A stretch of DNA of 64,000 nucleotides from Branchiostoma floridae. Taxonomy: Eukaryota; Chordata; Leptocardii; Amphioxiformes; Branchiostomatidae. The stretch is taken from contig NC_049995.1 in assembly GCF_000003815.2 (NCBI RefSeq), positions 4,107,747 through 4,171,746 on the forward strand. The letters are read 5' to 3'. Numbering within the stretch: the first letter of the stretch is position 1; each line of letters starts with the position of its first letter. Shown here one piece after another: positions 40,297 through 57,000 of the stretch. The position numbers were made by a program, and so were the translations under genes. Below the pieces are notes generated by a model, which searched no databases, was not told where the DNA came from, and was given only the letters and a program-made list of their open reading frames with translations.

Positions 40297-43200
40297 ATGG
40301 CCACAGGTGCCAATGCTACTCCTCTAGGACGGCTTCACCCTCTTCTATCGAGTGGAGGAACGAAGAGATCGGCCGACGAAGAGAGTGAGTAAAAAAAGAT
40401 GTTGCTTCCGTTCGTTTTTTCTCTGAGGGAAAAAGTCTTCGTCTTCGTCACGTTTGTGTGGCTTCTTGCTCACAATTATGTCATAATTAGGAGGATAACT
40501 GCTGTTTTTGTGTCATATTTATCTAGAAATATGTTTGACGCAGTTCCTATTGTAAATTGCAGGCCAAACGTTATATAAATATGACCTCGTCAAAAATAAT
40601 TTGCCCTCGTGGATGCTTCGTGAACCATCGATATGGTAGGCCGGGAACTCGGCTCTCTGCCATCGGTTCTCCCTCAAAAGACTAACGATAATTCAGGGGA
40701 TGATTAGTGAGCTCACAGTCATCATTATGTTAGCAGTACTGGAGACATTTGGCTCTATTAATGTGTAACTAGCACGTTCCTTGATGCATTTTTCTGTAGT
40801 CAAGGACATTTTCCAGATAAAAGACTTGCATTCAAAACATGTTAAGTTGATCCCTCCCCTCCCTTATTCCAAGCTGGGGAAAATTATTATTATAATATAG
40901 CAACAGTTTTGTGTTTTTGAAAAGAATAAAAGTTGTACGACATATGGTATAGCATGAAATGTTTAATTTGTTGAATTCTGTTTAGATTTGGATAATAAAT
41001 TTTAAAGGAATTTGTTTGACCTCCATGCAACACACTGTATCAGGGACCGTATTATCTTATGCTGGCAAAGTATTTTACTTCTGTGGCCAAGATTCTGCCA
41101 CAGTTAGCCTGGGACCAACAGGGTATTAGTTGACTCATAATGTTCACCTCTGCTGCCCATGTGGAGAACTGCGCATTCAAAGTATTGCTGGTGATGTCAG
41201 TTAATGAGTGAATTAAGGAATGGGTTCCAGAGTGCTCATTCGATAACAACAGGCTTCCCACAAGCGGATGGAGGGCGTTCAGGGGGTTGGAATGCCTGTT
41301 TGAGCGAGCGCTTCAAGTTGAACCCATTCCTTAATTTGCTGATGTGTAGGGACCAATCAATGCCCTCGTCCAAAATTTGGACAATCCCAGACGGAATAGC
41401 AGAGAAGTGACTGTATATAGTGTATGATAAACGTCAGAAGATAATATGTTTAGGACCTGAACTAGTATGCAAGGAGGATTCAGGGTGTTTCTCTGAGGCC
41501 AGGGCATTTCTCTCTCCTTGTGCACAAATTTTCTGTTCCTACAATCGCATTTTCTACTCTGCAGGGTTTCTTTAACACACACAATCATAACACATGATAG
41601 GGAAACACCAACACAAAAAAGCCCTGGCTGGGAAAGTACATTACAGGGAAATGTCTAGAGATCAGCTAGGAAGATATTGCAACACATGGAAACTACATTA
41701 GTACATACTTGGATGCCAGACTGTTTCTGCCAGGGCCTACACTGGCCAACTGAACTAGACCCTGATATTTATACAATTTGCTGGTATATTATTATGATGT
41801 AAGAAGAACATATGTGGCACCCATTTTAAGATGTTAATTTTTAGGACAAAAAAGAGGAATTGTACTTTCAATACATGGCACTGCGTGAAGATTTTGGCCT
41901 TCTTTTCCAGTTCCATCTTACTTCTTAGTGAAAATATGATTGTCTTAAAGTAAACACGACCTTGATAAAATCATACAAGACTTGTTACATGTAAATTAAA
42001 ATACATAATTAGGAAATAACAAATGTCCTTGCTCTTTTAGCATATGATAACATGTCACGTTATATAATATCTATATAGGATTATAAGCAATGAATCTGCT
42101 GTGTTGTGTGTGACTCATGTTCCATTGTTTAAGGTTCTGGTGGAAATTGGAATGATAGGGAAAGCAGGTCTAAGAAGCGGCGTAGTCGTTGGCAACAAGA
42201 TGTCGACAAAAAGACCATCATCCCAGGAATGCCAACTGTCATTCCTCCAAACCTCCCTAAAGACCAAGAAAGACAGTATTTAGGTAAGAAGTGTCTTCTT
42301 TTTCTGTATTTATCTTTTTGCTATCGCATGCTCAATACTAAAGCACTTCAATAAAAAATCTTCTTCCTCCCCAAACATTTATGATTGGTTATAATTGATG
42401 ATCAATGTTATATTGTGGTGTGCACTGAATATACCACCTTCAGTCTTACCCTGGTAGGTTTTTCCAGTATAGGATTGGTTTGCACCTTCAGCATTGTGAT
42501 ACCATTGCTCCACAATGTGTATTTTTTGAGTCAGCTAGCTCTTTTTTTTCAGTTTATATGTATACACCCCTTTGTTCTGTCTTTAATTACTAAATGTTCC
42601 TTAAAAATTACACTTCTCTAGAATATTACATGATCTGATGTGTAATAATCTTGCCTTATGTTAGGAAATAATGATGGTTGCTTATTTGATTAGCTAAAAC
42701 AAAAATTAGAGTTTGATTCCTTCTGGAGAGCTTCATGCAATCTTGTTGTTACTAATATGGTTATGGCTGAATTTCTACCACTTTGGCAAGAAAGTCTGCT
42801 TTCTTTAACAGAAATATGTAGATAATATATTAGTTAACATTTCCAGATGTATAGATTCCAGTGTTCTTGAACTATTACCAAAGACTAAGACACTTCTGCA
42901 TTTCATGTGCTGGTTTGGAAGTCTTGCAACTACAGCAAGTACTAGAGTTAGTCGTCAGCTAAGGCAACAAACATCTAATTGTTTTGCTCAGAGAATGGCA
43001 GTGTTATATCAATAACGAAACTTTCACCCAAAAATGAGACGTATCTGCACTGACGACCCTTTTGGACCTATGTTTGTAATAATAATCGTTGCCATTTCTA
43101 CACGACGTTATGGCAGAGTGTGATATCATTAACAAAACTTCCACCCAAAAATGAAACGTATCTGTACTGACGACCCTTTTGGACCTATGTTTGTAATAAT

Positions 43201-46200
43201 AATCGTTGCCATTTCTACACAACGTTATGGCACAGTGTGATATCATTAACAAAACTTCCACCCAAAAATGAGACGTATCTGCACTGACGACCCTTTTGGA
43301 CCTATGTTTCTAATAATCGTTGCCATTTCTACATGCCGTTATACAAATGTGTGATGTGTCCTGACTGGTTTTATAATATGTTCCTCCTGTTCTCTCTTAA
43401 CCTGCTCTATTACAGTTCATCTGCAAATTGAGGAAATTTCCCGCCGGCTTCGCACTGGAGATCTGGGCATCCCTCCCAACCCCGAAGACAGGTTTGGAAA
43501 ACAGGGCTTAACCAAAGTGTCTTTTTCCTTTTGTATCTATTTACTCCTGTTTATTTTCCCTGCTAATGAGTACTCTGTTGGCCAGGCAAGAAGTGGTCGA
43601 ACGAACGTTCTGGAAGGCAGTAATCACTTTTAATTAAATATTGTGTCACCATGCCTTCCATGCAGGGGTGAGGCATCCAACAAGCAGATACATGATAAAG
43701 TCTTACCTCTCCAAACCAAGATGTTTTTTGAGCATCGCGTGTGACAAAATTGCCATTGGTATCCCAGAAAAAAGTCGCACAATTTTCCAAAAAGCAATTA
43801 CTCAACCAACTGAATATGATTTTAGAAACGGTCAGACGTTTCAACTGGCATCCACCAGTTTTCATCAATTTGAATTGCTTACTGTTATTTGTGTTAATGA
43901 GAATTGGATTCTAATGTAGATTTCAACACAATTAACATCTGAAGCATATTTTGTCTGCAAAATGACTCAAAGCCAAACAAGAATTGGTACAGTATCTACT
44001 AAAGATTACAGCACAAGCTCAAAATATATAGATTGTCCATTGTAAGATTTGTGTAAGAGAAAAGATGAAATTTAACGTAATTATGTCTTCAAAAATATCA
44101 TGTGAAACTATGAAAGAATGGGAATGTTCCACTGTTCACATGCAAAAACCTATAAAAACCCGGAAAGTCCCAGCCCAACAATGTTGTTGAACAGGTCTTG
44201 TTGGATGCCTCGTGTATAATGAATGATTGCTACATACTCTTATTACAGTGCGGGCCTGAAAGCTTTGTGCTAGTAGCTAACAAGTTCTCTTCCACCACGT
44301 GTAGACTGTGTGGATTGAAGTGCATCCACCCACCAAGAAGGTTTTAGCCATGCCACATAATTTTTATGACCGACCTATTATGATTACCCCCGTTATTTGG
44401 TGCTTTTATGTTCAGGCAGGGCCTGTTACGATTGGTCCTCCCCCCTACAGCATGGCAGTAACCACATTATTTCACAGGGCGCAAATTTCACGATCCTTCA
44501 TCCCCAAACAGGTGCTCAAACCACTTTGTTTCCCAGGACAGATCCTCTTCGGGGCTGTGCCAAAGAACCTCTCCTCAACCCCCGTATTTCAAAATGGATA
44601 GCTCTGAAATCAGACAGCATTTGAAGGAAACTTGGCCAAGATTTGGGCTGCACCATTTCTAAAGAGGGGATTGTTACAGTTATTTGCTGACAAGCGAAAG
44701 AAATGCTCCCAAATTCTGTGAAAACATGCATTGAGGATTCTCAAAAGTATTGTTTACCATTGTCAGTGATATTGATGAAAAGTGCCTTTGTTCTTACCAC
44801 TTTCTGTCTGCTATGAAACAGATAGTTTCTGCAGATGACTCAATGTTCCAAATGTGTTGATTCATTCGAGAAAAAGAAAGCTTTCTATATCAGCTATGCA
44901 GATTTGTGAATTTTCCAGCTAGTGATGCGTTCATGACTCTCTCATAGTTAAGTTTAAATCTGTGGCTCGCTTTGAAAATTACTTTTATGTTGACCAAATT
45001 TAGCATGTGTGCGGTGTTTTTGTTTATTTTTTGGAAGTACCGTTCTTACGCGGCCTGATTGACGTTTTAACGGTTGAATGCACATAATCTTTTCCCCATG
45101 TTTCTCTATCTAACTCAGTGGTCTTTCGTACAGCAGTATGACGGGACAGGAATATACAAGACAGAGGTCATTCCATTTTAAATAAGCATTTCTATATCAC
45201 TGGTCAGACTAACATGTTTCCTATCACTAGACCTCTTGCCAATGTCTTCTCTATAGACCCTTTGGAAACAAACAAACAAACAAGCTTTCTTACAGCAAAT
45301 AAGGCACTTCTTTTAACATGTGTCTTCAGGTGTGTCCCTTTTTCTTTAGAAATTATCAATGAAAGAAAGGCCTTGGAGTAAATCTGCCCAATATTTTTAT
45401 TTTTGCATGTTGATTTCTTCAAAATGACAGCTGCATAGTTACATTTTAAGAAATATTTATAGTAATTATGAAGAAATTCTGGTAATATTATTAACAGAAC
45501 TAGGGCTTCAGAATTGCAGTGTTGTGCTAAGGTGTGTGTGCATAAACTAAGGGTGGCAAACATTTCTTTTGTCATAACAGTACAGGGAAAAGCACCATTG
45601 TACTGTTATACACAGTTGCTTTGGAAACGTTCTGCGAAATTATTGTGAAACAGAGCGCATCAAAAATATCTTTCCAAGAGCTTTAAATATGGAAATTTAA
45701 GGAAAAGACATTTAACTTGTGTACGAAAAGAATGTTTTTCCAGTCCTTGATGCTTAATTTAGACTACCCATCATATTTTTTGATTATCTAGAGTATGCTT
45801 TCCAATACTAACTCTGCATTCTATACCTGTAAAGCTATGAAAGAAGAGAAATGAATATCTTTTACTTAACTTAACTTGAAGTACAAATTTTAAGATGAAA
45901 CACAATTCTCTCTCCAAAATCTGTATTAAAAAAAGCATAGTGTGGGATCTGTGTTATGAAAACAACAGGTCTATTGTTTGCCACCCTTTGCCAGTCTTTG
46001 TTGTGGAATGGTTACAAACGTTAGGATTTGTGCACACAACAGGTCGCCCTCCCCGGAGCCCATCTACAACAGCGAGGGAAAGCGGCTGAACACACGCGAG
46101 TATCGCACGCGGAAGAAACTGGAGGAGCAGCGACACAACCTCATACAAGAGGCGCTGCGGCTCAACACGGACTTCAAACCTCCTGCGGACTACAAGTATG

Positions 46201-49200
46201 TAGTGACTGTTTTCCTTTGGAAACCGAATGGCCGGGTACATTGCAGAAGTTTGACTTTTTTGGATGCTTTAATTAGAGACTCTGGTATCAATTTTGTGAA
46301 CCTAGAACAAGCATGTTAGATAGGGCTCTATGGAGTAAAATATGAACTAGCCTGGTCCCTTGTTAATGTATGTACTATGTAATGACAGGGTTTTGTAAGT
46401 AATTAAGCTCAAATTGTATGCTAAGGCATTGTTCTGAAAAAGAGTTGCTGTTGTTTATTTATTACAGCATTCATGTATTCTTTCTCTCTTTAGGCCGCCG
46501 GTGACCAGAGTGAGTGATCGAGTGATGATCCCGCAAGAAGAACACCCAGACATTAACTTTGTCGGCCTGCTGATTGGCCCACGGTAATTTCCCCGTCTTT
46601 GTTTCTGTTGTAGTATAATGCTTGCAAGCTGGAGTTTTTACCAAGATCTTTAAGGATATCACTTATCAGCGTTGAAAATTTATTTGAGGGAAAGAATAAG
46701 CTTTGCATTGTTTAAGTTCATCTTTAACTTTAATGTGCTTGTCTTTTCAGTGGAAACACGCTGAAGAAGATAGAGAAAGATGTAAGTACCTTCATCTGTT
46801 TTTCTACTTTTTGAATGTTGTCTTCTTACTGTTCATTTTCTGGGCATAATGCTTTCTTTGTAGGGAACATTTATATGGATGACATCCAATAAGTCTCTTT
46901 GGCTAATCTGTCAGTAGTGTGCCAAAAACACACACGGATTTGGTGTACCAATGTCCACATGTACATGTCAACATTTGCCACTGATGACCGTATTTTTTCT
47001 TTTTATTCTATGAAAATTTGCTGTATTTATTCTTGAATTCAGACCGGAGCGAAGATCATGATTCGTGGGAAGGGTTCCGTGAAGGAGGGAAAGATCGGAC
47101 GGAAGGACGGACAGCCTCTCCCCGGCGAAGACGAACCCCTCCATGCCCTCGTCACCGCCAACAACGCCGAGTCCGTACGCAAGGCCGTTGACGAGGTTTG
47201 TGGTAGAGCCACGTGACCAGGATGTTGTCAGATCGCTCGCACTTCCGTTCCGCATGCTTTTGCTTCATTTTCCATCCACAAAACTTCCGACTTGAGCCGC
47301 TATATACCTGACTACTTTATATTTGACAGTACTAGCACCTCTTTTCCACCCAGTCATAGCCACAAAGACAGCTTACTTACTTTGATTTAGATTATATCAC
47401 ATTTAATCATTTCTAATATATATTGATTATGCTTGTCATGGTTTTAATAATTAATCATTATCATTGCTTTTCTGATGATCTTTGTAGCATTCAGCATGTC
47501 ATTTTCATAATTGATTCTAATTTGTTATAATCTTACTTACATGCTTTGCCCCCAGTATTTGACACGTAGGATTGACTTTGCCTGTGTTGACTTTGTTTAG
47601 TATTGCTTAATTAATACCTTTAATTTATAGAGAGAAGTGTTCATACAGTTATGACCAGTCATAAAAGTAAAAATTTACACCACCAAAAATGTAAAGCATT
47701 TTAAAAAGCTCCAATTTTAATAACTGTAAGACTTGCTAAAATGAGAAAAATGTATGAAAATCAATTGCTGGAGTTCTTTGATGCAAAACCTTATGATTAT
47801 ATTTCGACAATCCATAGCTGTATGAACAACATGTATATCATACATTATGCCGCATCTTTAGTTTGACCACTGATTATTTTCAGCTTGCTTGCCTCCATAA
47901 GCATATATACTAGGACCTCTGCATTTTCTGTACGTAGTTTTAATATCGCAACATTTTTGTAACCACGTCTTCCACCCTTGTAGTTTTGTCATAATTTTCC
48001 TTTTCCTTCTTGTTCTCACGTGGCTTTATTTCTTTCCCAGAGTTTGACACCTTGCCGGAAAACCGATATACCCTCTGTACTAATGAATCATTCTGAAGAT
48101 TTTTACAGATCTTATCATAAGGGACTTTTGTTGTATATTATTTTTTTAAAACCACCTCTGACTTTATGTATGTAAAGGCACTCTTGTATCTGCCCTCTTG
48201 CAGTACTAATTTATGTTTTAATGTCACAGGGTGTTGAGAAAAGTAATGAGATACTAACGCTCTTCTTCTACGGCGATATTGACACCCTTCGATGTGCTTG
48301 TAAGATCAGAACGTAAGCTGCATGCTACTGTGTCACCACCCTTTATCATCTATTAGAGCTTAAAGGGCAGACATGAGTGGAAAGTTTGTTTTTGTTTTTT
48401 GTGTATGTCTTTATATAACCTTTTTGTTCAGAAAATGTTAATCGTGTGGTTTTGATATTTTGAGAAAGTTAAAAGCACTCATCTTGTGGTATAGCAACTA
48501 TGTGATACTTGGACCTAAAAATGACTTTTATTTTTCATTCTTGAGGTATTGGAATCAAACTTTACTTATAAGTTTCTCATATGTGGTTATAGTTGCTTTA
48601 AGTGAGAACCATTTTTAAGACTTGTTGTGACAAATTTCAAATTGTGTTTAAAGAGGAATAGACTTATAAAATTGCATGTCTGAAGTTAAGTTTCCTTTGG
48701 GGTATCTCTATTTAATGATTTTTTTTTTACTGAGAGGTTTTAAGTCAAGCTCTGTGCTGATGTCTGCCCTGTAAGAATAATCGTTCCACTTAAAAATAGC
48801 ATCTAATTATTTTTGCTTGTTTCATTATGCTTGCATTATAAGATGTACTTATGCCAGGCATTTCTCAAGCTAGGGGCTAGCCTACCCATCCACCTTCCTG
48901 TGCTGCTACTGTCGTTGTGGCGTTGCGTGTCGTGGCCAGTTTTCGTGCTTTGTGTTCGTGCCGATCGGACGCGGCCCCTGTGGTCGCGCCCACCCTGTAC
49001 TAACCAATCACGATAGTTCCGTCTCCGATCTCTGTTTTAGATCAAAAAGATTCTGCGGATGGGAATCGAGACGCCGGAGGGGCAAAATGATTTGAAGAGA
49101 ATGCAGCTTCGCGAGCTCGCGGCGCTCAACGGGACGCTACGGGATGGTGAAATAGCCAGGTACCCGACCACCTTCATACTTATTGCTGTCTTTTCCCCCA

Positions 49201-52200
49201 CACATTTTTATTTGTAGATTAAAGCCATTCTGAAACAAGGGATTGAAACTCCGGAGGGGCAGAACGATCTGCGGCGCATGCAGCTGCGGGAACTCGCGCG
49301 CCTGAACGGAACCCTGAGGGAGGACGATGCTCATCGGTAAGTTCTCTTCGCTGCTTTCTTTGTCACTGCTTGGGACACAAGGTTATCTGTTTTTTATCGA
49401 GTTTTCATAGACAAATAACAAGAATGAGTGAACTTTCCAACAAAAATGATGTCAACAGAAATTCAAATCTTGTGCTATCTTTGCACCAGGGTTAGTTGAT
49501 AAAACATTTTCTCGTCTGACAGATACTAGGAGATTGATGACTTCGTGGAATATCGTGATATTGATGTAGGAACATGTTAAATCTTTGTTCTACTAAATTA
49601 GACTTTGGGCCAAATAAGTGAATTGATTACAGAGTTGATTAGCAGGGAGAAGTTTATGGATTCTTTGACATGCCAGGATTGGGCGAAGCACTTCCAGAAG
49701 TTTGCATCACTGATACATAACAGAAAGCAACACTGCACATTAACAGTAAAGAAATGAAAGTATTGGAAAGAACTATGGATTCAACACAGATGAGGTACTT
49801 AATTTTTTTAGCTTAAGCCTGAATCATGTACTGTGAGTTTTCACAATGTGGTATACATGTAGGTTTTTTTGTCGTGGTTTGAAGTTTCTGGTGTATTTTC
49901 AATTTCCATGTGTTTGCCTAATGTGGTTGTTACATGCTCCTCTTCGTGTAGCATTTTGAAGAGCTTGTTCCTCTTCAAGAAAAGATCACGTAGGGACATG
50001 CTGTTTTATGCTGTTAGTTTTCCTTATGGCTTATATTTTTTAAAGTGATGTTGCAGTTTACTAACTATGCAATTCAGATCCTTGCACATTATGCCAACAG
50101 CGTGCATCTCAAAAGCTTCCCAGGTAGCAAACTTATGAGTGAAATTGTGTAAATATTATGTCAAAAGTATGTGCCAACATCAGTGTGAAGTTAGAAGAGA
50201 TTTTATCAATGTAACGTAGACAACGCCATTTCTGTCCCACTGGGGCTGTTTTTGATGGAGGTGTTTGAAATAGAATAGGGGGTTCTACCTGGTTTGATAT
50301 GGCGTTCGATCAGGATCGGTCCATATCTGTGTGAAGTTAGCAGACATTTTATCAAGGTAACCTAGACAATGCCATAGTTTTATTAGGTCCCATACTACTT
50401 GTTATGTTGTGCTAACCGTGTGATTGTAGGTGCACGAACTGCGGTTCTGCCGAACATCGCACCTGGCAGTGCCCCGAGCAGCGGAACATCACCAACAACG
50501 TGGTGTGTACCATGTGTGGCGGCGCGGGACATATCGCCTCTGACTGTCGGCAGAAGAGGTGAGGTTTTCTCCATATTTCAATGTCCAGATTCCTTCTTTT
50601 GTGGCAAACTTAAGCAATTCACAGGGTTGGACAAGTTTTCTAAAATTCAGTTGTCCTATAGGGCAAGCACATAGAAAATTTACTTGCTGGAACCAACTGT
50701 TCACTTGCCCAAAATTCAATGGCACTGGAAATGTATTTTCATTTCCAGCAATGGAATTCTTATTATTGCCTCTGCAATTTCACTTCTCTGGACAATAGGG
50801 CTTGTCCAACCCTGATTCAACTAGCCCTTAAAAAGAAATCAACAATGAAAATAGAGGCCTTAGCAATTAAAGTATTATATTACAGGTTTACTTAAATGTA
50901 GCTAATTGGTAATGCCTATGAGGGATTCAAGACTTATGAAAATGTTTTGTTTCCACTTCCAGGCCTGGTGAAATGGGAGGAGTGAACCCTGTCTCTGGAG
51001 TAGACAAGGCCAAGATGGACAGTGAAGTAAGTACCACAGATGAATTTAAGTTTACAGGGACTGAATTTTGGAGGGGAAAGGAGATGTTCGGTCACTGTTT
51101 TAATTTTCTAGCTGAAACTGCTGTAATAACGCAATGCAAAGCACATGTTCTCTTTGAGAGCTCACTACAAAACTGTGAACACAACATCATTGGTAGAAAA
51201 AAAGAGATTAAATTTATACAGTATTCTACTACAGCATTTTACAAGTACAATGTACCACATCTCTCAAGCAGATTTTCCCAAGAACAACCCTTCAAAACCA
51301 TAAGACTTAACCTATTTGATACATGACCAATTGCTGTATAGTTTGCTAACCTGTTGATGTTGTACCCTACAGTACATGTCCCTGATGGCTGAGCTGGGAG
51401 AGGGGCCGCCGCCGCCCTCTTCAGGCCCTGGCAACCGTGGGCCACCACCTAACCGCGGACCCCCACCAAACGTGAGCACACTAGTGTACTACCTCTGCCA
51501 GAATTACACTTTTTATGAGGTTGTCTGTTGTATTGTTTGTGTAGAGAATAGATAAGTTTTACACGATTTTATACTTTCCTCATGATGATAAATTCCACTA
51601 TTAGACCATGTACATCAGGGTATAGATTCATTTATAAGTTGTAATTTTATCATGACTTAAGTAAATTTACAGAAAACATTTTTATATTAGCCCCTTATAG
51701 TTTAGCTGTACACAGACATTACATACATACATACATAACCTTTACTTTGACTGGATGGCCCTGTTGGCACTTATGAGTTGTACTTTCATCCTGAGTGTTA
51801 CAAGTAAGTTTTCAGGTTGGAACATTTCTAACTGCAGAAAAAAGCAGCATTTTATCTCCTTATATTTTAGCTGTACTCAGACATTTGTAAAATTTTGTCG
51901 TTAATATGTTGTCTTGTTTGGTTTTCCAGATTGGCAACCGGCCCCCTTGGATGAGTGGACCCCCCAAGGCCATAGGAGCCCCTCCTGGAGGCCCACCCCC
52001 TCCCGTTCCCCCACCCCCTAACGTCCCCAGCATGGTGCCCCCTCCCCCCACCAGTATGTCGGGCATGCCACCCCCCTCCAGCAACGCTAACATGCCCCCC
52101 TGGCAGATGCCACCCCCCAAGACGTCGATGAACAACAATCAACAACCGCCACCACCAGGTAATAAGGGAGTTACTGTTAATTCATTTCATTCTGCAGTTA

Positions 52201-54046
52201 TTTAGCGATAAGAGGGAAAGGGATGTTTCGATAATGGCCTAACAGTGATACAATTTTCTATCGATGAACAACAATCAACAACCGCCACCGCCAGGTGAAT
52301 AAGGGTGCAGTTAATTCATTTCATTCTGCATTTTTTTTTTGGAGACGAGTGAAAAGAAGGTTTTCATGGTGCTGTGTAACAGTTGAAACAATTATGTGGT
52401 ACAGTAGTTATGCAATTTGCAATGCAGAGGTAACTGCGAAGACCATGAAGATAAAACCACAGTAAAGTGTGAAGATTGTGATCATGAGTAACATTCTTTG
52501 AAAACCCCAAATTTCACACTATACAAAGTTAGTATGTTTTACAATGTAAAGCTTTGAAGATGTTGTCTGATAGTTTTATTCTGCAAGTTCAGAGAGAATT
52601 TTACTTAGTCAGTGATAACACAGGCTAGCATTCCTTCGGACTGTATTTATTACTGCTTTGGTTGTTTTTGCTGCTCACTGGTGTTTCTTGCCAATGAAAA
52701 GCCTCTTTTAGTCTATTCTTAATGAATTCAAATCATCATCGTTACATTGCCAATGAAAGGCCTCAGTTAGTCCATTCTTAACATTGTTACTGGGGATTCA
52801 AATTATGATTATTACATTGCCAATAAAAAGCCTTTGTTAGTCTATTCTGAACATGCTTACTGGGGATTCAAATTATAGACCCAAATGACATCATGCAACG
52901 TCCAACTCTTGCAAGACAGGGAACAATGGATGCTAAACTGGATAGCATGTGTGTGTGTGAGTGAGTGTGCATTGACAATAAAAAGCCTCTGTTCTTGCTG
53001 GTGTTGTGGTAGAACTCTCGGTGGCTTGGCTTTAGCTCACTGCCATGTCTTACTCTCCCACAGTTCCCATGGTGCCGCCGCCTCCCCCACCCCCGTCGTC
53101 AAGCCAGCCGGCGCCCCCGCCCCCACCCAGCAGCGGCATCACCAGCCTGCCCTGGCAGATGAGCACTGCAAGCACGACCTCCACCATGGCCTCTGCTCCC
53201 TGGCAAAGTACGCGCCATTCAGATTACTGTAAATGCAGTTAAATTCGCAGGGATTTACTTTCGCTGTAGCGGGAAAATGAAGAATTCCTCCTCAGGCATT
53301 ACCAAAAAATCTTACTTTTGCAATGCTGTGGTCACTCTGGTCCTTTTTACTAGTTATCCGCACCTGAAAGTATTTCTTGAGTTAAAGGGTTTGTAGTCTA
53401 TGCTCTCTGATGGGAACAAGGACAAAAGCTGCATGGCTTCAGCACGCTAAAATGTGTATATTGTAAACAAATTCTGTTTAATTCATTTGTGTGTGGCAGT
53501 CGCATTTAAGCAACATCTTTAAATTCCCAAAAGCCCAGTAGTTTTTTCAGAATTCTCTGTACTTTTTTGGAGTTGTAAATTCAGAATGTAAAGGAAAGCA
53601 CTATCTTATAAGTTACAAATCAGGCATTACATCCTGTTAGTAAGAGTTGCAAATTTAGATTTAAGATCTTCAACATGGTGCTTATATTTTTTTATATAGT
53701 GTGGATTGTGACTTTTTAAGTTGTAAGTCAACAGCATTTCTATGTTTATTCAACATGTAATTAAGTCTGTCTTGATGTGTCTGTTTCAGGTGCACCAACC
53801 TCAGGAGCCCCCCACAACCATGGACCCCCGATGCCATGGCAACAGCAGATGGTACAGCCCGTCCCGCCACCTGGCATGCCCATGATGCCGCCACAGCCAC
53901 CCCTACCCCCAGGGCCACCTCCCCCACCCCCTGGTGGGATGTTCGGACAGGCTCCCCCTCCACCCCCTATGGATTTCTCTCAAATGGGCATGCCCCCTGC
54001 CCCGCTTGGCATGCCTCCTGCACCCCCTCCTCCCCCACCAAATTAA
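40297..54046 (+). CDS. SF1: Splicing factor 1 (branch point-binding protein)
   Basis: Fourteen coding exons plus one alternative join in frame to 593 codons: 40297-40384, 42134-42283, 43416-43491, 46043-46195, 46494-46583, 46751-46781, 47043-47195, 49041-49159 or 49218-49336, 50430-50558, 50963-51026, 51373-51471, 51930-52158, 53064-53207, 53790-54046. The start [11 protein letters not shown] matches vertebrate SF1. [10 protein letters not shown] is the U2AF65-binding motif and [10 protein letters not shown] the phosphorylated SPSP motif. The KH domain (about 155-247) has [16 protein letters not shown], followed by QUA2. Two CCHC knuckles ([28 protein letters not shown]) follow, where human SF1 has one. 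The C-terminus is Pro-rich. SF1 binds the intron branch point in the nucleus and recruits U2AF. Confidence 0.97.
41211..41336. repeat. 16-bp inverted repeat in SF1 intron 1
   Basis: AATTAAGGAATGGGTT (41211-41226) and its exact reverse complement (41321-41336) enclose about 94 bp. It could be a tiny MITE; no target duplication is evident. Confidence 0.75.
43004..43354. repeat. 117-bp tandem repeat, three units, SF1 intron 2
   Basis: Units start near 43004, 43121 and 43238 with TATCAWTAAC. Each contains TTTCCACCC-type and CTTTTGGACCTATGTTT blocks. The period is 117 bp, and the third unit is slightly shortened. Confidence 0.88.
43570..43880. repeat. Dispersed repeat copy in SF1 intron 3
   Basis: AGCAATTACTCAACCAACTG, then ATATGATTTTAGAAACGGTCAGACGTTTCA and CATCCACCAGTTTTCATC, matches a segment in EF-1alpha intron 4 (about 60815-60905) in the same orientation. 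Its presence in two genes shows it is interspersed. The class is unknown. Confidence 0.7.
48230..48299 (+). other. SF1: Possible cassette (poison) exon in SF1 intron 7
   Basis: This 70-nt segment is bounded by an acceptor (GTCACAG|GGTG) and a donor (CTT|GTAAGA) and is open in the incoming phase. Its length is not a multiple of three, so splicing to exon 8a would reach an in-frame TGA early in that exon. It also contains TACTAAC followed by a pyrimidine run (about 48252-48270), the ideal SF1 binding sequence. Whether it is ever spliced is unknown. Confidence 0.3.
49041..49159 (+). CDS. SF1: SF1 alternative exon 8a (QUA2 region)
   Basis: This 119-nt exon with acceptor TTTTAG|ATC and donor CCAG|GTACCC encodes [20 protein letters not shown] and then [19 protein letters not shown]. 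It is a duplicate of the exon at 49218-49336, with the same length, start phase and end phase. Compared with 8b and human SF1 it differs at KQ to RM, at R to A within RELAR, and at the C-terminal EDD. The intron between the two exons is only 58 bp. Confidence 0.85.
49218..49336 (+). CDS. SF1: SF1 alternative exon 8b (QUA2 region)
   Basis: This 119-nt exon with acceptor TTGTAG|ATT and donor CATCG|GTAAGT encodes [20 protein letters not shown] and then [19 protein letters not shown]. This is close to human SF1 ([20 protein letters not shown]), so 8b is probably the ancestral form. Including both 8a and 8b would shift the frame. Confidence 0.92.
52131..52330. repeat. Local duplication of the SF1 exon 12 3' end
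   Basis: TCGATGAACAACAATCAACA and the CCGCCACC-CCAGGT splice donor of exon 12 (52126-52160) recur at 52261-52296, again with a GT donor (CCAGGTGAAT). The flanks AATTCATTTCATTCTGCA also repeat. A second, possibly usable, donor copy is the result. Confidence 0.85.
52680..52995. repeat. Degenerate repeats in SF1 intron 12
   Basis: TTGCCAATGAAAAGCCTC, followed by TTAGTCTATTCTTAA, recurs with variation at about 52688, 52748, 52818 and 52972. Spacings are uneven at 60 to 155 bp. The last copies also share ACTGGGGATTCAAATTAT. Confidence 0.75.
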
Positions 54047-57000
54047 ATCAAGTGGTACGGTCCACAATTTGCATACATGATAATAATGATTTAAAAAAAG
54101 GTGGAGTCATCCTGTAGAGAAGTGTAGCACTTACATTTGTGGAGCAACTTAAGGGGGGAGTGATAAAATCCGAGATGCAGTGAAAGTTGCAACGGGGGAC
54201 GGAGAAAGTTGTTGTCTAAATTTAATTTTTATGTTTTTATAAGTACCGGTCTGTCGTTAAATGATACATGTTCATGTTACAGTAGGTATTATAACAGGAA
54301 AGGACGTCCTTTACTGATTTTTGTGGAATCAAGGCATCAAGAAAAGGGTACTTTGGGAAATGAAATAAAGCAAGCCATTTCTAACATTCATACTGATATG
54401 TAAAGTCACTGCTCCATTGAAACCAAATCAAATCAGTAAATGTATATTATGAAAACATGGACTATGTATACCTAACAAGTAGTTGAAAAGCATTGTAGTA
54501 GGAATTGTGGACAATGGCAAAAGTGAGAAAGGTGGTATTTTACGAAGAAAGCATGAATATGTGCTTGTGAATGATACAAACATGTAGGATACCAATAGTC
54601 AACTGTTCACATTAACTAGTATCTTTCGTCCACATCCATTCATGTCAAAAATTCAACCTGTAAATTTTGTGTGGGTTGAAGTCATGTTTTTTATGCTTGC
54701 ATGGAAAAGAAATGTAAAAAAAAAGAAGAAAGGTTTACTCTGCTATTTGCAGTATAGACAGCTGTTAAAGAGGGCGGGTATTGGGTGAGTAGATCTAGTG
54801 ATGGTGTCGGTTTCTCACAAGTTGTAAATACACTAATATTTGGGGGGTTCCAATTTTCTCAAGGGACTCGTGCTTTAACTGATAACTTTGGGCTAATTCT
54901 TTCATGTATATTAGTCAAAGCGTGTGGTGGCAGGGGGAATGGTGAAGCATTTTCTTCCGGGGTTAAATTTGCTCTCAGAATATATTGAAGATCTTTGGTT
55001 GTGATTTTGTTAGAAAGAAGGTTATTAGAAACAAATGTTTGGTGCATTGTCTTCAGGCCTAAGCTAATCATAAATGTTGATCCCTAAAAATGTCTTTAGC
55101 TGAGAAAGGATGTTGTTTTCAAACAGTTGTTGCTACTAGTATTTAGACATCTTTTGTGAACAAATTGCAGATAGTTAACATGAATTTGTTCATATGATAA
55201 CATACAAGTGCTGAAATCTTCACTTTAGAAAAATGCAACATTCAAAAAATAATCTTCCATAATTTGTCATTACAACGTAGTATTTTATTTGCAGTGTTGG
55301 TAATGTGTTATTAGAGTGCAAACTGTGAAGTATTTTGGGGAGGTCAAAATCCTGTGCAAGCTAAACATATCTATAACAGTATAAGAAGGTGTAACTCCTT
55401 GGTCAAATTTGTATGTCCTTCGGTCTGGCTTTTCAGGGGAAACAAATGTTATTTAGAAATGTCTGCTGTACCTAGTTTGTGAAATCCTTGGAAATATAAA
55501 ACCTAGTCTAAGTTGAATCTTTTTGTTGCTGATCTTAGTATTTTCTCACTAGAAGTTTGGAATCGTTCCGTTCATTACCATGATTGCTAGAGCAAATGCT
55601 TTGTGTCCGAAGATGAATTCAATAAAGTTGACAAGAAAATTGCTGTTTTTCTGTGAATGTTGCGTTACATGTGAAATGGTTTTGATAGATGTATTTTTCT
55701 GTTTGGAATAGATAGTCGAGAAGAATCGTGACAAATTGGCTAGGGCTTGTTACAATTTTCGATGTGCATGTATAGGTAGAAAAACTTGCACCAATTTTCT
55801 TGCTAATAGGTGCTTATACCATGGAGGTTGTATATAGACATATAACCTCCTTGCTTCTACCAAGAACATGAGAGATCAAAATTGGAGGTTCTGCTGCACT
55901 AGTACAGTGCTGCCGAAAGAATACTCGGCCCCAAATCCAACGTTTTTCTAGGTATTGTGACTATTGTCACACAAAAAAGTTTAGAACCAATCCATCCAGC
56001 TGTTCTTCAGTTATAACATATTGGTGATGCACAAGCACATCTAGCTTTGGTGGAAGGTAAAATAGGTAAAACATGACATATGGCCCCATTGTGAATTGAA
56101 ATGATGGAGTTTTGTTGTCAATCTTCACATACACACATGGTGTGAAAGCCGCTCATTATCTTTCTGTTGATTGTCAAGGGGCAAAATGCATGTAGCATTT
56201 AAACCTTCTCCAAGAACCTATTAATCAAAAGGGGCTAGTATGCACTTAGAACATCTGCTTTTTGTTGTGGAAAAACAAGGATCATAGGCCCTTCAGTTGA
56301 GATGCAAATGTAGACTTGCAAAGTTTGGTTTTAAAGTCATTGTGGAACTAAAAATTTGATTAGCATGACTTCAAATGGCATGCTGTTAAGGGACAATGTT
56401 TTTCATCAGTTAACTGTATCAAGGAGCTTTTTTATGAAAGGTCCTTGACTGTACCTACAGTTTTAATTGAATGATTTGATATTTTATACATTTACATAGA
56501 TACAGATACATGTATTTAGATAAACATTTGTGGAAAGATTGACATGACAGGTGACATCAACTTTTGATTTGCTCATTCGAGTCATTGATACACCATGCGT
56601 GTGCATGGGGTTTATTGAAGATTCGTGCACATGTAACCAACGTTACATGTGTAACGAATTTCCGCCTTCATCAAAGAAATTTTATATCTAGTAGTAACTT
56701 AAGAGGTTTTGATGCTGCAGTTTTGATAGCTGTTCTTTCAGCCAAATTTTCTTCTTTTTTTTCATCTTTCTTTGGCCATTTTCATTGTTTTACTAGTAAG
56801 TGCCATGTGCCCATTCCTTTTTCCACAATATAATGAATGAATTTGATGAATGAACCCCATTATGGTACATTTTTCCCCACTGGGCCAAAGTAAGGAGGTT
56901 CTTTAATAGTATTTAGGACTTGACTGGGCTATAAACTAGTACAGGTCACATGTTGCATCATGTTATTTGTACATATAAACGTCTAAAAACTCAACTTACT

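What the first reader, a model, noticed from the sequence alone, without database searches (positions are those of the whole stretch)
49041..49336. Duplicated, mutually exclusive exon pair in SF1 encoding the QUA2 region
Exons 8a and 8b are both 119 nt, both enter in phase 0 and leave with two bases, and encode homologous 39-residue segments. Joining both would break the frame, and the 58-bp intron between them is probably too short to splice, a known steric mechanism for mutual exclusion. QUA2, together with KH, contacts the branch-point RNA. The choice of exon could therefore change branch-site preference of a core splicing factor. Human SF1 has only the 8b-like version.
Basis: partly seen in the sequence, partly recalled or inferred. 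Interest (0 to 1): 0.85.

Follow-up and report, generated by a model that had tools for sequence, protein, structure and literature searches.

The report
Twin branch-site exons in lancelet SF1
The lancelet gene for SF1, the protein that recognises intron branch points, carries two alternative versions of the exon for part of its RNA-gripping surface, laid out so that a working message should contain exactly one of them.

Summary
Exons 8a (49041-49159) and 8b (49218-49336) are both 119 nt, enter in phase 0 and leave two bases. They encode homologous QUA2 segments (29 of 39 residues identical) 58 nt apart. Only one-exon products stay open; both exons, neither, or spacer retention give premature stops. 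Eight of 13 shared fourfold sites differ while protein divergence is low, so 8a looks like an old, constrained coding exon. The 58-nt spacer is far below introns measured here: 120 inferred myosin and kinesin introns, minimum 111 nt. Candidate branch adenosines lie 17-23 nt from the 5' splice site, below a published ~50-nt steric threshold. Best reading: a genuine mutually exclusive pair, enforced sterically, with nonsense-mediated decay as backup. The claim of altered branch-site preference is less secure: the QUA2 core is intact in 8a. A new clue is a perfect UACUAAC at 8a's acceptor, the only 7/7 match among 12 SF1 acceptors examined, so SF1 level or Quaking competition could set the switch. 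No RNA evidence and no second lancelet were available. The kind is known (U2AF1 exons 3/Ab); no report of the SF1 case was listed in my paper searches.

The parts
47043..47195 (+). SF1 exon 7 (most of KH domain), ends in phase 0 at ...KAVDE
   Evidence: AG/GT borders and open frame; 5' splice site GAG|GTTTGT
48998..49004 (+). Perfect UACUAAC candidate branch sequence for exon 8a (A at 49003, 37 nt from the 3' splice site)
   Evidence: the only 7/7 match in the last ~60 nt of the 12 SF1 introns examined; three others have a 6/7 match
49015..49016 (+). Upstream AG, 13 nt after the candidate branch A; its use would add 24 nt ending in an in-frame TAG
   Evidence: Sequence; distance; the reading of the 24 nt is by eye
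49041..49159 (+). Exon 8a, QUA2 segment version a, 119 nt
49160..49217 (+). 58-nt spacer between 8a and 8b; GT...AG; candidate branch A at 49176 (+17) and 49182 (+23) from the 5' splice site
   Evidence: intron-size comparison
49218..49336 (+). Exon 8b, QUA2 segment version b (human-like), 119 nt
50430..50558 (+). Exon 9, common downstream exon with two CCHC zinc-knuckle patterns
   Evidence: Translation; Pfam zf-CCHC matches the second knuckle, the first is read by eye
48078..48258 (+). Three further UACUAAY motifs in intron 7 (motif starts 48078, 48204, 48252), possible Quaking/SF1 sites
   Evidence: intron 7 holds 4 of 8 ACUAAY motifs in the 12 introns examined, with 19% of their length (binomial p = 0.051): weak

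Best explanation
Exons 8a and 8b are a tandem-duplicated, mutually exclusive coding pair of SF1. [Shown from sequence] Both are intact QUA2 exons, and only one-of-two products keep the frame. [Inferred] 8a cannot be spliced to 8b because the 58-nt spacer places the likely branch points 17-23 nt from 8a's 5' splice site, too close for U1 and U2 to be engaged together; both-inclusion, skipping or retention would give premature stops and be removed by nonsense-mediated decay. [Inferred, soft] 8b is the default exon, and 8a, with its optimal UACUAAC branch sequence, is the one whose use depends on SF1 or Quaking levels. [Inferred, least secure] The two proteins keep the same basic branch-site recognition but differ in strength or regulation of binding.
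For: Equal length and phase, 29/39 residue identity. Open frame for 7-8a-9-10 and 7-8b-9-10; stops with 8a+8b, with neither, and with the spacer retained. 8 of 13 shared fourfold sites differ against dN 0.22-0.29; a neutral simulation carrying all 42 codon differences gave 10 or fewer residue changes in 0 of 20,000 runs and a stop in 68%. 8a changed 2 of 21 positions invariant among 8b, human and yeast but 8 of 18 others, Fisher one-sided p=0.016. 0 of 120 inferred introns are under 100 nt, minimum 111 (all 142 + 134 rows listed). Published precedent: OGDH exons 4a/4b with branch points 25-41 nt from the 5' splice site, below a ~50-nt threshold (PMC7969005, passages); U2AF1 exons 3/Ab, where both or neither gives stops and NMD (PMC5224494, passages).
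Against: No transcript data were available, so 8a inclusion is not shown. If all 10 residue changes but only half (21) of the nucleotide changes fell on 8a, the neutral simulation gives 10 or fewer changes in 4.4% of runs, so constraint on 8a alone is then only moderately supported. Donor strength does not clearly separate the exons: 8a's donor lacks the consensus at +4 to +6, yet its U1 pairing (-7.1 kcal/mol) is 5th of 12 SF1 donors, 8b's (-8.8) 3rd. The intron sample covers two gene families and only scored candidates (65 of 349 and 122 of 191 first-look candidates). It leaves out a kinesin exon array with copies 67-70 nt apart, because those are repeats of one segment and not neighbouring exons. 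Local folding is no better than shuffled (z = +1.4; 94 of 100 shuffles fold at least as well). No second lancelet genome could be checked.
Confidence: 0.8

Rival explanations
1. 8a is mainly a regulatory (poison-type) exon: joint inclusion with 8b, spacer retention, or use of the upstream AG gives premature stops, letting SF1 tune its own level through nonsense-mediated decay.
For: The three non-exclusive products tested carry stops; an upstream AG 13 nt after the UACUAAC would bring an in-frame TAG (by eye); UACUAAC is SF1's preferred site (PMC4666396, passage).
Against: 8a alone gives an open frame into exons 9 and 10 with the QUA2 core kept and a synonymous-rich divergence pattern; a poison exon needs no conserved 39-residue protein.
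Confidence: 0.12
2. 8a is a decaying duplicate, no longer or hardly spliced in; the open frame is residual.
For: 8a differs from human at 13 of 39 positions, 8b at 6; 8a's donor lacks the consensus at +4 to +6 (GUACCC).
Against: Near-saturated fourfold sites with intact frame, intact AG/GT, equal length and changes that tend to avoid invariant positions.
Confidence: 0.06
3. The exons are alternatives, but exclusion is imposed by regulators or RNA structure rather than by the short spacer.
For: In U2AF1, exon Ab is repressed through its branch-point/pyrimidine-tract unit (PMC5224494, passages), and in OGDH lengthening the donor-branch distance did not always free the 5' splice site (PMC7969005, passage).
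Against: 58 nt is about half the smallest of 120 inferred introns; no excess local RNA structure.
Confidence: 0.2

Closest known systems
U2AF1 (U2AF35) tandem exons 3 and Ab of vertebrates (PMC5224494 passages; PMC6821156 abstract)
   Same: Another 3'-splice-site recognition factor; homologous tandem exons inside an interaction domain; both or neither gives stops and NMD; isoforms reported to differ in inherent nucleotide preference.
   Different: Different gene and domain (UHM, 67-nt exons, seven residue variants), described in vertebrates; here KH-QUA2 of SF1, 119-nt exons, ten residue differences, in a lancelet.
OGDH exons 4a/4b (PMC7969005 passages)
   Different: The OGDH branch points were mapped by experiment and the gene is metabolic; here they are only predicted.
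SF1/BBP and STAR-family KH-QUA2 proteins (1K1G, 7VPX, 4WAL/4WAN, Quaking 4JVH)
   Same: 8b is close to human SF1 (33/39); 8a keeps [12 protein letters not shown] and LNGTLR.
   Different: 8a carries R240K and R249A (human numbering); K at 240 is also in yeast BBP and Quaking, 249 is E in yeast and I in Quaking.
Fgfr IIIb/IIIc exon pair of chordates including amphioxus (PMC5703972 passages)
   Same: Tandem-duplicated alternative exons in a lancelet gene.
   Different: Receptor gene regulated by Esrp, not a core splicing factor.

Membership tests
Tandem-duplicated mutually exclusive exons | Adjacent homologous exons of equal length and phase | tested here: met
Tandem-duplicated mutually exclusive exons | Only single-exon products keep the reading frame | tested here: met
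   (five products tested)
Tandem-duplicated mutually exclusive exons | Both exons under coding constraint | tested here: met
   only moderate for 8a alone under the least favourable apportioning (4.4%)
Tandem-duplicated mutually exclusive exons | RNA shows one and only one exon per transcript | not testable with these tools
   No transcript data held
Sterically enforced exon exclusion | Intervening intron below the working size in this genome | tested here: met
   58 nt against a minimum of 111 in 120 inferred introns of two families
Sterically enforced exon exclusion | Branch point mapped close to the 5' splice site | tested here: inconclusive
   Only candidate adenosines at +17, +23 and +51 (the last 7 nt from the 3' end); not mapped
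SF1/BBP | SF1-HH domain, BBP-type KH, QUA2, zinc knuckle | tested here: met
   Pfam hits; QUA2 by alignment to 1K1G/7VPX
RNA-structure-guided (docking/selector) exclusion | Pairing elements stronger than chance around the pair | tested here: inconclusive
   Local fold of 48900-49420 z = +1.4; six inverted repeats listed, one joining a 14-nt intron 7 stretch to part of 8b; long-range pairing not tested against chance, one species only
U2/U12 incompatible splice-site exclusion | U12-type donor on one exon | tested here: not met
   8a donor GTACCCGAC does not fit the recalled U12 consensus RTATCCTTT, by inspection

The most novel reading that the evidence does not exclude
SF1 in lancelets is a self-reading switch: the optimal UACUAAC at exon 8a, the preferred site of SF1 and also a Quaking site, lets SF1 activity (promoting) and Quaking (repressing) set the ratio of two SF1 proteins with differently tuned branch-site surfaces, so that the cell's branch-point reader chooses its own version.
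Probability: 0.17. Interest if true: 0.85.

Novelty: new member of a known kind. Interest (0 to 1): 0.6.

Why it matters
SF1 recognises the branch point early in spliceosome assembly, and PMC4666396 describes residues 1-370 as common to all mammalian SF1 isoforms (passage), so its RNA-binding part is treated as invariant. A natural pair of QUA2 versions gives a ready-made test of how QUA2 tunes branch-site choice. It would also make a second early 3'-splice-site factor, after U2AF35, diversified by exon duplication.

Tried and rejected
Local RNA structure: no excess over shuffles; long-range docking was not tested against chance. Homology of the spacer with the end of intron 7: 21/58 ungapped matches, not convincing. 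Repeat or transposon origin of intron 7: the only match found in the genome is itself (that search skips simple repeats and very common words). Structured RNA in 41000-56000: no Rfam match at the gathering score. U12 incompatibility: the 8a donor does not fit (recalled consensus). Enrichment of ACUAAY in intron 7: 4 of 8 in 19% of the length, p = 0.051, not convincing. Weak donor as the reason for 8a being regulated: not supported, 5th of 12 in U1 pairing. Dating the duplication: synonymous sites are saturated, and of the three positions where 8a and 8b agree against human (223, 235, 241), two (235, 241) are also the yeast state, so timing is unresolved. Paper searches for SF1 mutually exclusive exons or lancelet mutually exclusive exons listed no report of this pair: 20 of 186 papers listed; 15 of 142; 10 of 11; 4 of 4; 8 of 8; 12 of 14. 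Only open-licence papers are held.

Full report
What is there. The stretch lies in a gene for splicing factor 1 on the + strand of a 513-Mb genome. The size fits the Branchiostoma floridae assembly as I recall it; no call names the species. Joined exons give a 322-residue stretch with SF1-HH, a BBP-type KH domain and a zinc knuckle (8a form verified from residue 2). Between exon 7 (47043-47195) and exon 9 (50430-50558) lie two exons of 119 nt, 8a (49041-49159) and 8b (49218-49336), with a 58-nt GT...AG spacer. They share 29 of 39 residues and 76 of 119 nt. A whole-genome protein search gives 8b, 8a and one Quaking-type segment elsewhere.

Frame logic. 7-8a-9-10 and 7-8b-9-10 read through. In the joined test sequences 8a+8b meets a stop after 95 codons, neither after 88, and spacer retention after 109, at the TAG of 8b's own acceptor. 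This matches the published U2AF1 case, where including or excluding both exons leads to NMD (PMC5224494, passages).

Age and constraint. 27 of 39 codons differ, 17 of them silently; 8 of 13 shared fourfold sites differ. dN is 0.23 (NG86), 0.29 (LWL85) and 0.22 (ML); dS is not estimable, 1.9 and 22.6 respectively, which means saturation, and YN00 gave no answer. Starting from 8b and adding 42 random differences, 0 of 20,000 neutral runs kept residue changes to 10 or fewer, and 68% contained a stop. If only 21 or 25 changes are given to 8a and all 10 residue changes are charged to it, the fractions are 4.4% and 0.24%. Changes tend to avoid positions invariant among 8b, human SF1 and yeast BBP: 2 of 21 against 8 of 18 (one-sided p = 0.016). 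8a is thus most likely a used coding exon.

Why the two should exclude each other. I inferred intron lengths from neighbouring exon matches of two large families, using all 142 myosin and 134 kinesin rows listed (only 65 of 349 and 122 of 191 first-look candidates were scored). Of 65 + 55 pairs none was under 100 nt; the smallest were 111 and 122, the medians 207 and 480. These lengths are estimates good to a few codons. A kinesin exon array with copies 67-70 nt apart is not in this count, because its copies repeat one segment. The other 11 SF1 introns examined run from 167 nt upward (borders good to one or two bases). Candidate branch adenosines in the spacer lie at +17 and +23 from the 5' splice site, and one at +51 is only 7 nt from the acceptor. 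Published mapping for OGDH puts branch points 25-41 nt from the donor, under a proposed ~50-nt threshold; there, lengthening the distance did not always free the donor, so additional regulation is possible (PMC7969005, passages). The steric reading is therefore well supported but inferred.

Which exon is regulated. 8b has a GUAAGU donor and a pyrimidine-rich tract. 8a has CAG|GUACCC; its U1 pairing (-7.1 kcal/mol) is nevertheless 5th of 12 SF1 donors, 8b's (-8.8) 3rd, so donor strength is no firm guide. 37 nt upstream of 8a's acceptor is a perfect UACUAAC, the only 7/7 match among the last ~60 nt of 12 SF1 introns; three others have 6/7. UACUAAC is called the optimal branch sequence for mammalian splicing and SF1's preferred site in PMC4666396 (passage). 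SF1 and Quaking compete for ACUAA branch sites, SF1 promoting and Quaking repressing exon inclusion (PMC13004596, abstract and passages). A Quaking-type segment exists in this genome. Intron 7 holds 4 of the 8 ACUAAY motifs in the 12 introns examined, a weak excess (p = 0.051). So the 8a acceptor is a plausible SF1/Quaking competition site. This is a hypothesis.

What changes in the protein. In STAR proteins of the SF1/QKI/GLD-1 group QUA2 recognises the 5' (U/C)AC part of the site (PMC4735526, passages). In human numbering 8a differs from 8b at 224, 227, 228, 240, 249 and 256-260; RMQLRELA and LNGTLR are untouched. From recall, not from a call, L244, L247, A248 and T253 contact RNA. R240K is the yeast BBP and Quaking state; residue 249 is E in yeast and I in Quaking. 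The most likely effect is a change in strength, release or partner contacts with the same basic motif; a change of motif preference is possible but unsupported. The U2AF1 isoforms are a precedent for differing nucleotide preference (PMC6821156, abstract).

Known or new. Mutually exclusive tandem exons are well known, including in lancelet Fgfr (PMC5703972, passages) and in U2AF1. Searches listed nothing on such a pair in SF1; some lists were cut (20 of 186, 15 of 142, 10 of 11, 12 of 14). Mammalian SF1 isoforms are described as sharing residues 1-370 (PMC4666396, passage). I rate it a new member of a known kind in an unusually central gene.

Limits. No transcripts, no second lancelet, no outgroup gene structures and no protein model were available. 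Human was checked only as protein chains of solved structures.

Noticed in passing
window 48230-48312: Exon-like 83-nt segment in intron 7 (cag|GGTGTT...AGAAC|gtaagc) with an open frame by eye and a UACUAAC inside; if spliced in it would shift the frame. The search with intron 7 found no other match in the genome.
   Followed up: partly
window 50430-50558: Exon 9 encodes two CCHC zinc-knuckle patterns, whereas the human SF1 chain aligned lacks the cysteines of the first.
   Followed up: no
L005, G000:C2:31967610-31968130: Three tandem copies of a kinesin motor exon segment at about 150-nt spacing, the first two shortened and nearly identical: looks like a recent exon duplication.
   Followed up: partly
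window 50166-50229 and 50312-50375: 64-nt direct repeat, 81% identical, in the intron downstream of 8b.
   Followed up: no
window 42999-43342: Three tandem copies of a 117-nt unit, 92% matches, in the SF1 intron after the N-terminal (ULM) exon.
   Followed up: no
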